Shown here: in pieces, positions 52,785-53,268 of the stretch | How the letters are laid out: each line of letters opens with the position of its first letter | Numbering within the stretch: the first letter of the stretch is position 1 | DNA from: Spraguea lophii | Lineage: Eukaryota; Microsporidia; Spragueidae | Assembly (NCBI GenBank): GCA_001887945.1 | Contig: LDOQ01000255.1 | Location: 1-60,040 of the forward strand | Length of the DNA stretch: 60,040 nucleotides | Direction: 5' to 3' | The notes under the pieces: model-generated | What the model was told of the DNA's origin: nothing | Databases searched by the model: none | What the model saw: the letters and a program-made list of their open reading frames with translations, nothing else | Made by a program: the position numbers and the translations under genes

Positions 52785-53268
52785 TGGGTAAAAAACTTTT
52801 CTTCTTTTTACGAAAAACCTTGCTTGGTTCAGTGGTCGTGGGTGGTAACCAAATCTCAGTCTGGCGAGTTCGAATCCCTCACATAAAAAATTTTTCAGAA
52901 CAAAAATAGAGGGGAAGAGAAAAAGAAAGTTGTTGAGTGAGTGAAAGTTCGATAGCGTAACATTAGCTACATCTTGTATGTTGGTCCATTAACGGATTGA
53001 AGCAGTGTTTAGTTGTTGTGGTTGCAATCCCTGTATTAATTTGTGAAGTTATATTACTATGTCAAGAAAGATATTAGAATCCTATTAAGGATAATAGAAT
53101 AATGATTACATCATACACAAATCCCTAACACTCTGAAACATAAAATAGAATATGATTAATGCATATCCGTAGAAAAAACAATTAATACAAGTTTAAATGC
53201 ATTTTAAGAATTAAAAGTCATAGATCATAATAGGTCAGAAACTTCTGTAAATAAAAGTCTCATTAAAA
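52785..53268 (+). repeat. tRNA-derived SINE-like element, copy E (near full length)
   Basis: The head has a canonical A-box TGGTTCAGTGG at 52825-52835 and a B-box AGTTCGAATCC at 52867-52877, 31 bases apart, the spacing of a tRNA gene. The body: TTGTTGAGTGAGTGAAAG, GTTCGATAGCGTAAC, TGCAATCCCTGTATTAATTT, TATTACTATGTCAAGAAAG, TACATCATACACAAATCCCT, ACACTCTGAAACATAAAAT and CAATTAATACAAG. The tail is TAAATAAAAGTCTCATTAAAAAA. It has the best-preserved promoter of all copies. Confidence 0.78.

What the first reader, a model, noticed from the sequence alone, without database searches (positions are those of the whole stretch)
52785..53268. A tRNA-derived SINE-like family in a microsporidian genome
Copies at 2000-2470, 28820-29050, 32780-33262, 35336-35806 (minus), 35809-36035, 40660-41121 and 52785-53268 share one architecture: a tRNA-like head with A-box (TGGTTCAGTGG at 52825) and B-box (GGTTCGAATCC, exact at 35758-35748) at tRNA-like spacing, a body of about 350 bp with blocks kept in order, and an A/T-rich tail. 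Several copies lack the head, as 5'-truncated retroposons do. Two tail forms split the family: TAATTAAAAT-type (2.4, 33.2, 36.0, 41.1 kb) and TAAATAAAAGT-type (29.0, 35.3, 53.2 kb). Older copies look AT-shifted while copy D is GC-rich, giving an age series. I recall no tRNA-derived SINE described for microsporidia.
Basis: partly seen in the sequence, partly recalled or inferred. Interest (0 to 1): 0.85.

Follow-up and report, generated by a model that had tools for sequence, protein, structure and literature searches.

The report
Recently active SINE in microsporidian genome
A short copy-and-paste DNA element has scattered many copies, a good part of them recent, through the compact genome of an unnamed microsporidian parasite, a kind of mobile element for which we found no description in this group.

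Summary
The finding holds: this is a real SINE family. In the whole 5.27 Mb genome a 38-base young head motif occurs 112 times (reversed control 0) and the young 3' end 117 times (control 0). Young copies are about 490 bp with one start point and an A-tail; 31 of 38 have an exact target-site duplication of at least 10 bp, against 7 of 1406 mismatched flank pairs. Identity to the young consensus runs from 99.6% to 66%, and GC falls with age (rho 0.87, n=85).

Corrections: the copies at 32780 and 35809 look like one insertion shared by a 2.07 kb tandem duplication, and the window's copies are all old (87% or less). 'tRNA-derived' is not shown: the head has boxes A and B at tRNA spacing, but with the boxes masked it matches none of 31 tRNA genes of this genome beyond chance and scores at most 12.2 bits against 76.7 for a true tRNA. 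An L1-like LINE is present, but its 3' end is not assembled, so partnership is inferred.

The parts
2004..2479 (+). old SINE copy, ATTAAA-type tail (TAATTAAAAT at 2449)
   Evidence: profile E 4.7e-85; 75% to young consensus; tail
   Evidence: profile E 8.8e-13, model positions 56-459; 71% to young consensus
28821..29052 (+). old SINE copy lacking the 5' half, AAATAAA-type tail (TAAATAAAA at 29026)
   Evidence: profile E 4.5e-34, model positions 262-503
32771..33272 (+). very old SINE copy, ATTAAA-type tail (TAATTAAAAT at 33245)
   Evidence: profile E 3e-62; 70% to young consensus
35324..35815 (-). youngest copy of the window (87% to young consensus), AAATAAA-type tail; box B exact at 35758-35748
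   Evidence: profile E 1.5e-140
35810..36046 (+). 3' half of an old SINE, shared with 32771-33272 through a tandem duplication
   Evidence: profile E 6.5e-27; 33106-35155 matches 35884-37947 at 82%
40654..41134 (+). very old SINE copy, CATTAAAAT tail
   Evidence: profile E 2.3e-71; 70%
52797..53281 (+). old full-length SINE copy of the finding, AAATAAA-type tail (TAAATAAAA at 53248)
   Evidence: profile E 5.2e-122; 79% to young consensus
52825..52835 (+). box A-like motif TGGTTCAGTGG
52867..52877 (+). box B-like motif AGTTCGAATCC
   Evidence: read
33106..35155 (.). first unit of a 2.07 kb tandem duplication (protein kinase gene plus 3' part of a SINE)
   Evidence: kinase domain
35884..37947 (.). 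second unit of that duplication
   Evidence: kinase domain

Best explanation
A SINE: a short non-coding retrotransposon family of about 490 bp. SHOWN: many dispersed copies, one fixed 5' end, an A-rich 3' tail, exact target-site duplications of 10-17 bp next to the tail, occasional 5' truncation, box A and box B at tRNA spacing in the head, a body without a match above threshold in Rfam, and AAATAAA near the 3' end in the young consensus and in 28 of 46 old copies. INFERRED: RNA polymerase III transcribes it from the internal boxes; the RNA gains or carries a poly(A) tail, perhaps through the kept AATAAA; the protein of an L1-like LINE nicks AT-rich intergenic DNA and reverse transcribes the RNA from its tail into the nick (target-primed reverse transcription). 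A recent burst made at least 112 copies with near-identical heads; older copies decay towards the AT-rich host composition.
For: Young copies: 42 matches, 40 of them at 97% or more (40 of 455 first-look candidates scored); 112 heads and 117 tails by pattern, controls 0. TSDs of 10 bp or more in 31 of 38 against 7 of 1406 mismatched flank pairs; old copies 6 of 34 against 17 of 1122, as expected of decay. Truncated young copies still end in A-tails (L014 40-488 with an 11-bp TSD; L055 112-488, which has swapped TSDs with its neighbour). Insertions avoid genes: 0 of 31 empty sites lie in an open frame of 150 or more codons, against 388 of 1391 positions in the same flanks. Box B and ATAAATAAAA are among the best-kept stretches of the old copies. 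A LINE with an open frame of 479 codons runs off contig C72; relatives found by protein search carry endonuclease or reverse transcriptase domains, and its end matches LINE-1 ORF2 proteins.
Against: No transcript was seen. Box A is only averagely conserved in old copies, and the first ten bases less so. The young consensus has TTTT at 79-82, just after the head (33 of 37 young and 25 of 40 old copies have T4 or more there); if four T stop Pol III here, a full-length transcript would need read-through. The LINE's 3' end is not assembled; the one decayed LINE whose downstream sequence is in hand shares nothing with the SINE except an inserted copy and short matches at E 0.15 or worse. Pfam finds no domain in the LINE frame at E 0.001, and its RVT_1 match is below the curated cut-off. 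No clear TSD in the six window copies tested, nor in two of the 38 young copies (L046, first copy of L014).
Confidence: 0.88

Rival explanations
1. A polymerase II retroposon: copies of an ordinary polyadenylated non-coding RNA (retrocopies), with AATAAA as a normal poly(A) signal and boxes A and B accidental.
For: AATAAA lies about 12 bases before the A-tail and AAATAAA is kept in 28 of 46 old copies; TTTT follows the head; the head is not a tRNA; box A is not specially conserved.
Against: Box B is among the most conserved stretches of old copies; boxes A and B sit at tRNA coordinates (alignment); 36 of 38 young copies start at the same base or within two bases of it, just before box A, as an internal-promoter element would. 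The sample is biased to full-length copies because the best matches were fetched, but 112 heads against 117 tails genome-wide point the same way.
Confidence: 0.1
2. A non-autonomous DNA element (MITE) or solo-LTR family.
For: The genome holds at least one retroviral-protease-type LTR element (C73) and others that read like it.
Against: The ends are not inverted repeats (GTCCCGCC.. and ..TTTCATTCGTAAAA, by reading); duplications vary from 10 to 17 bp and abut an A-tail of variable length.
Confidence: 0.01
3. Only tandem or segmental duplicates.
For: One pair in the window looks like exactly that.
Against: Copies on many contigs with their own flanks and TSDs.
Confidence: 0.01

Closest known systems
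tRNA-related SINEs of fungi, e.g. AfuSINE2 of Aspergillus fumigatus (PMC5063351; search listing with start of abstract only)
   Same: short, dispersed, tRNA-like head, target-site duplications (4-14 bp there)
   Different: there the families are said to originate from tRNAs; here no parent tRNA among 31 tested; duplications of 10-17 bp here
Mammalian SINEs with AATAAA, a Pol III terminator and an A-tail, such as B2, Dip, Ves (PMC8466645; start of abstract only; the name 'T+ class' is recalled)
   Same: AATAAA shortly before an A-rich tail
   Different: those also carry a Pol III terminator there; here AGTTTCATTCGT lies between AATAAA and the tail, and 35 of 36 young copies have no TTTT after position 100
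'SINE' class in the Nosema bombycis genome, 28,669 bp, 0.18% (PMC3614468, passages)
   Same: microsporidian, annotated as SINE
   Different: no sequence, structure or copy described in the passages seen; could not be compared
LINEs (non-LTR retrotransposons) of microsporidia (PMC4202319 and PMC13174016, passages; the latter names L1 and Dong-R4 types)
   Same: the likely source of the enzyme; an L1-like LINE is present here
   Different: autonomous; the one here is cut by a contig end

Membership tests
SINE | short non-coding element, dispersed in many copies | tested here: met
   about 490 bp; 112 heads, 117 tails; 85 copies in 295.5 kb held, a sample chosen largely for SINEs
SINE | target-site duplications | tested here: met
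   31 of 38 young copies, control 7 of 1406
SINE | A-rich or LINE-derived 3' tail | tested here: met
   A-runs at the end of 36 of 38 young copies
SINE | internal Pol III promoter (boxes A and B) | tested here: met
   sequence only: TGGCCCAGTGG and GGTTCGAATCC at tRNA spacing; transcription not tested
SINE | mobilised in trans by a LINE | not testable with these tools
   an L1-like LINE exists; its 3' end is not assembled
tRNA-derived SINE | head descends from a tRNA | tested here: inconclusive
   whole head z up to 5.9 because of the boxes; outside them best z 1.83 of 31 tRNAs; CM 12.2 bits or less against 76.7. 31 of the 57 tRNA matches were read
T+ SINE (class name recalled) | AATAAA before the A-tail | tested here: met
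   AAATAAA in 28 of 46 old copies
T+ SINE (class name recalled) | Pol III terminator near the tail | tested here: not met
   no TTTT after position 100 in 35 of 36 young copies

The most novel reading that the evidence does not exclude
A SINE that is still jumping in a reduced microsporidian genome, whose head is a Pol III promoter with no surviving tRNA parent and whose RNA is polyadenylated through its own AATAAA, a T+-like route outside mammals and without the usual terminator, driven by a single or very few L1-like LINEs.
Probability: 0.3. Interest if true: 0.72.

Novelty: new member of a known kind. Interest (0 to 1): 0.58.

Why it matters
Microsporidia are the textbook case of shrunken genomes. 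A SINE with a recent burst (about 1% of the genome if the 112 copies are full length) and a long tail of older copies shows that retroposition can go on against that reduction. The 31 young insertions tested lie outside long open frames, at least 15 of 146 contig ends appear to lie inside a young copy (read from the rows listed), and one pair of copies appears to have recombined and inverted the segment between them, so the family shapes both assemblies and chromosomes. It also offers strain markers and a way to date insertions.

Tried and rejected
Rejected: a tRNA parent among those read; tandem or segmental duplication as the sole cause (explains one pair only); a DNA element (TSD lengths and A-tail); a body from a known RNA (Rfam at E up to 10 in two copies: only matches far below the gathering scores).

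Dropped before counts: 48 young BLAST matches were collapsed to 38 distinct copies, 101 profile matches to 85. Of the 46 old copies 34 had both ends and enough flank for the old-TSD count. Two tRNAs with a long variable arm (Ser, Leu) were left out of the covariance model (29 of 31). The profile was built from 26 sequences, among them the young consensus and six window copies.

Full report
What the window is. The window is a whole contig (C27) of a 5.27 Mb genome in 73 contigs. It carries ordinary eukaryotic genes (MCM, ribosomal L15, ClpB-type AAA, SNF2 helicase, FtsJ; EF2). EF2 is 67% identical to an unnamed protein and 63-65% to named microsporidian ones (Vavraia, Glugea, Dictyocoela, Astathelohania, Gurleya), so the host is a microsporidian; apart from its own proteins no closer named species was listed. 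The window has about 24% GC.

The observation. All seven intervals belong to one family. A profile built from 26 sequences (the young consensus, six window copies, 19 others) finds all seven plus an eighth at 20033-20404, and nothing on reversed sequence. The copies at 32780 and 35809 share a 2.07 kb tandem duplication with a protein kinase gene (82% identical; it starts inside both copies), so the window shows seven independent insertions at most.

Genome-wide. Searching with the copy at 52785 gave 41 matches (40 of 327 first-look candidates scored); with a young copy, 42 matches, 40 of them at 97% or more (40 of 455 candidates scored). A 38-base head pattern with up to 3 mismatches occurs 112 times (42 forward, 70 reverse; reversed control 0), a 3'-end pattern 117 times (58 and 59; control 0). 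Two samples not chosen for SINEs, the window (8 copies in 60.0 kb) and the eight reverse-transcriptase regions L070-L077 (3 copies in 60.5 kb), together suggest roughly 480 copies; this extrapolates from 11 copies only. At least 15 of 146 contig ends appear to lie inside a young copy (read from the rows listed, which are not complete lists), so the assembly probably undercounts.

Anatomy. The young consensus is 488 bases including the first four A of the tail, 46% GC: GTCCCGCCTGGCCCAGTGGTC.. with box A, GGGTTCGAATCCC with box B, an A-rich linker, a body of about 350 bases, then GATAAATAAAAGTTTCATTCGT and an A-tail. No Rfam family reaches its threshold; three chance-level matches appear at E up to 10, one of them the box B hairpin in a tmRNA model. 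Among the 46 old copies the best-kept ten-base stretches, after correcting for base, are 363-372, box B (55-64), 224-233 and ATAAATAAAA at 464-473; box A is average and the first ten bases are below average.

Mechanism. Of 38 young copies, 31 have an exact target-site duplication of at least 10 bp (median over all 38: 14); mismatched flanks give 7 of 1406. Of the seven others, three (L056, L057, the second copy in L045) show one by eye with a mismatch or an interrupting base, and L046 and the first copy of L014 show none. The last two are the head-to-head pair in L055, which have swapped duplications: the 5' flank of one equals the 3' flank of the other and the reverse. That is what recombination between two inverted copies, flipping the segment between them, would leave. 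Old copies keep a duplication in 6 of 34 cases against 17 of 1122 mismatched; the six window copies among the 34 keep none. Of 31 young insertions with duplications, none lies in an open frame of 150 codons or more at the rebuilt empty site, against 388 of 1391 control positions in the same flanks; selection or AT-rich target choice can both explain this. The young sample was fetched as the best matches, so full-length copies are over-represented in it.

Age. Identity to the young consensus runs from 99.6% to 66% over 85 copies (39 at 95% or more, 46 below 90%), with a gap between 95.7% and 88.4%; GC falls with identity (rho 0.87; 0.75 within the 46 old copies). In old copies G>A and C>T lead (1750 and 1399 changes). 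The young copies form one clade of 38 (support 0.91) and the ATTAAA-tail copies fall in a clade of 13 (support 0.79). So there was one recent burst on top of a long-lived family.

Is the head a tRNA? RF00005 gives 57 matches in the genome (63 of 485 candidates scored), none of them a SINE head among the places listed. Against 31 of these 57 tRNA genes the whole head reaches z 5.9 (6.1 in the first round), but with boxes A and B masked the best is z 1.83, which 31 tries would give by chance. Different tRNAs of this genome resemble each other more (best score to another isotype 52 to 89, median 72) than the head resembles its best tRNA (52.5). A covariance model of 29 of these tRNAs scores a true tRNA (one of the 29) at 76.7 bits; of ten SINE heads in the eight loci searched, eight score 11.0-12.2, one 6.4 and one is not found at E up to 10. 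The best two align over the whole model, at E 0.05 and 0.09, with a broken acceptor stem; the others match only the T-arm hairpin. The layout is that of a tRNA promoter; descent from a tRNA is possible but not shown.

The LINE. Of 9 reverse-transcriptase matches in the genome, C73 is LTR-type by its protease domain and C44 and C48:16630 read like it; two lie in the telomerase gene. One, at the start of C72 and below the curated cut-off, belongs to a non-LTR element in an open frame of 479 codons that runs off the contig. Pfam finds nothing in that frame at E 0.001, but its relatives in the protein search carry endonuclease (PF03372, PF14529) or reverse transcriptase domains, and four of its five matches among solved structures are LINE-1 ORF2 proteins (E about 1e-9, over residues 360-467). 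A decayed relative lies at C48:24138-25251 and a short piece at C1:71222-71557. Two weak matches with stops, in C56 and C5, were not classified. No 3' end of the intact LINE is assembled.

Precedent. Ten searches of the paper library were made. Terms combining microsporidia or Nosema with SINE, SINEs, tRNA-derived, short interspersed or retroposon listed no paper that, from its title, abstract start or the passages seen, presents a microsporidian SINE. Passages seen: PMC4202319 (LINEs, no SINE), PMC3749934 (non-LTR elements, no SINE), PMC12558613, PMC7313128, PMC12449221, PMC13174016, PMC10759460, PMC8206274 (no SINE in the main text), PMC3614468 (a table row 'SINE' 0.18% without description). 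In PMC10790688 and PMC11657153 the SINE is the mosquito's, in PMC6744698 a surname. The other listed papers were not opened. Subscription journals and supplements were not searched.

Verdict. A real, recently active SINE; a new family of a known kind; not found described before in this phylum; tRNA origin and LINE partner open.

Noticed in passing
window 33106-37947: Tandem duplication (82% identical over 2.07 kb) of a gene for a protein kinase with an N-terminal hydrophobic stretch by reading; a further match of the flank at 39009-39145.
   Followed up: partly
window 20901-21815 and 23341-24252: Pair of about 300-aa proteins, each with an N-terminal hydrophobic stretch by reading; the second matches ubiquitin carboxyl-terminal hydrolase (PF00443, 25.1 bits), the first has no Pfam match.
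   Followed up: partly
window 12813-16328 (minus): 1171-aa protein beginning with a hydrophobic stretch, whose only listed match is the host's own protein (the 7997 candidates sharing most words scored); PTP3-like by recollection only.
   Followed up: no
L055 1503-2960 (C1:142811-144268): Two head-to-head young SINE copies with exchanged target duplications, as left by an inversion through recombination between them.
   Followed up: partly
L078 (C21:1900-3600): LINE-like coding sequence with a 68-base piece of the reverse transcriptase region ahead of it, followed by a few TTAGG-type repeats inside the contig.
   Followed up: no
G000 contigs C15, C25, C54, C56, C58, C60: Six contigs start inside a young SINE copy at nearly the same point (3' motif at base 84-85), a sign of repeat-limited assembly.
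   Followed up: no
L072 2225-5941 (C2): Telomerase gene with a 1239-codon open frame rich in asparagine stretches by reading.
   Followed up: no
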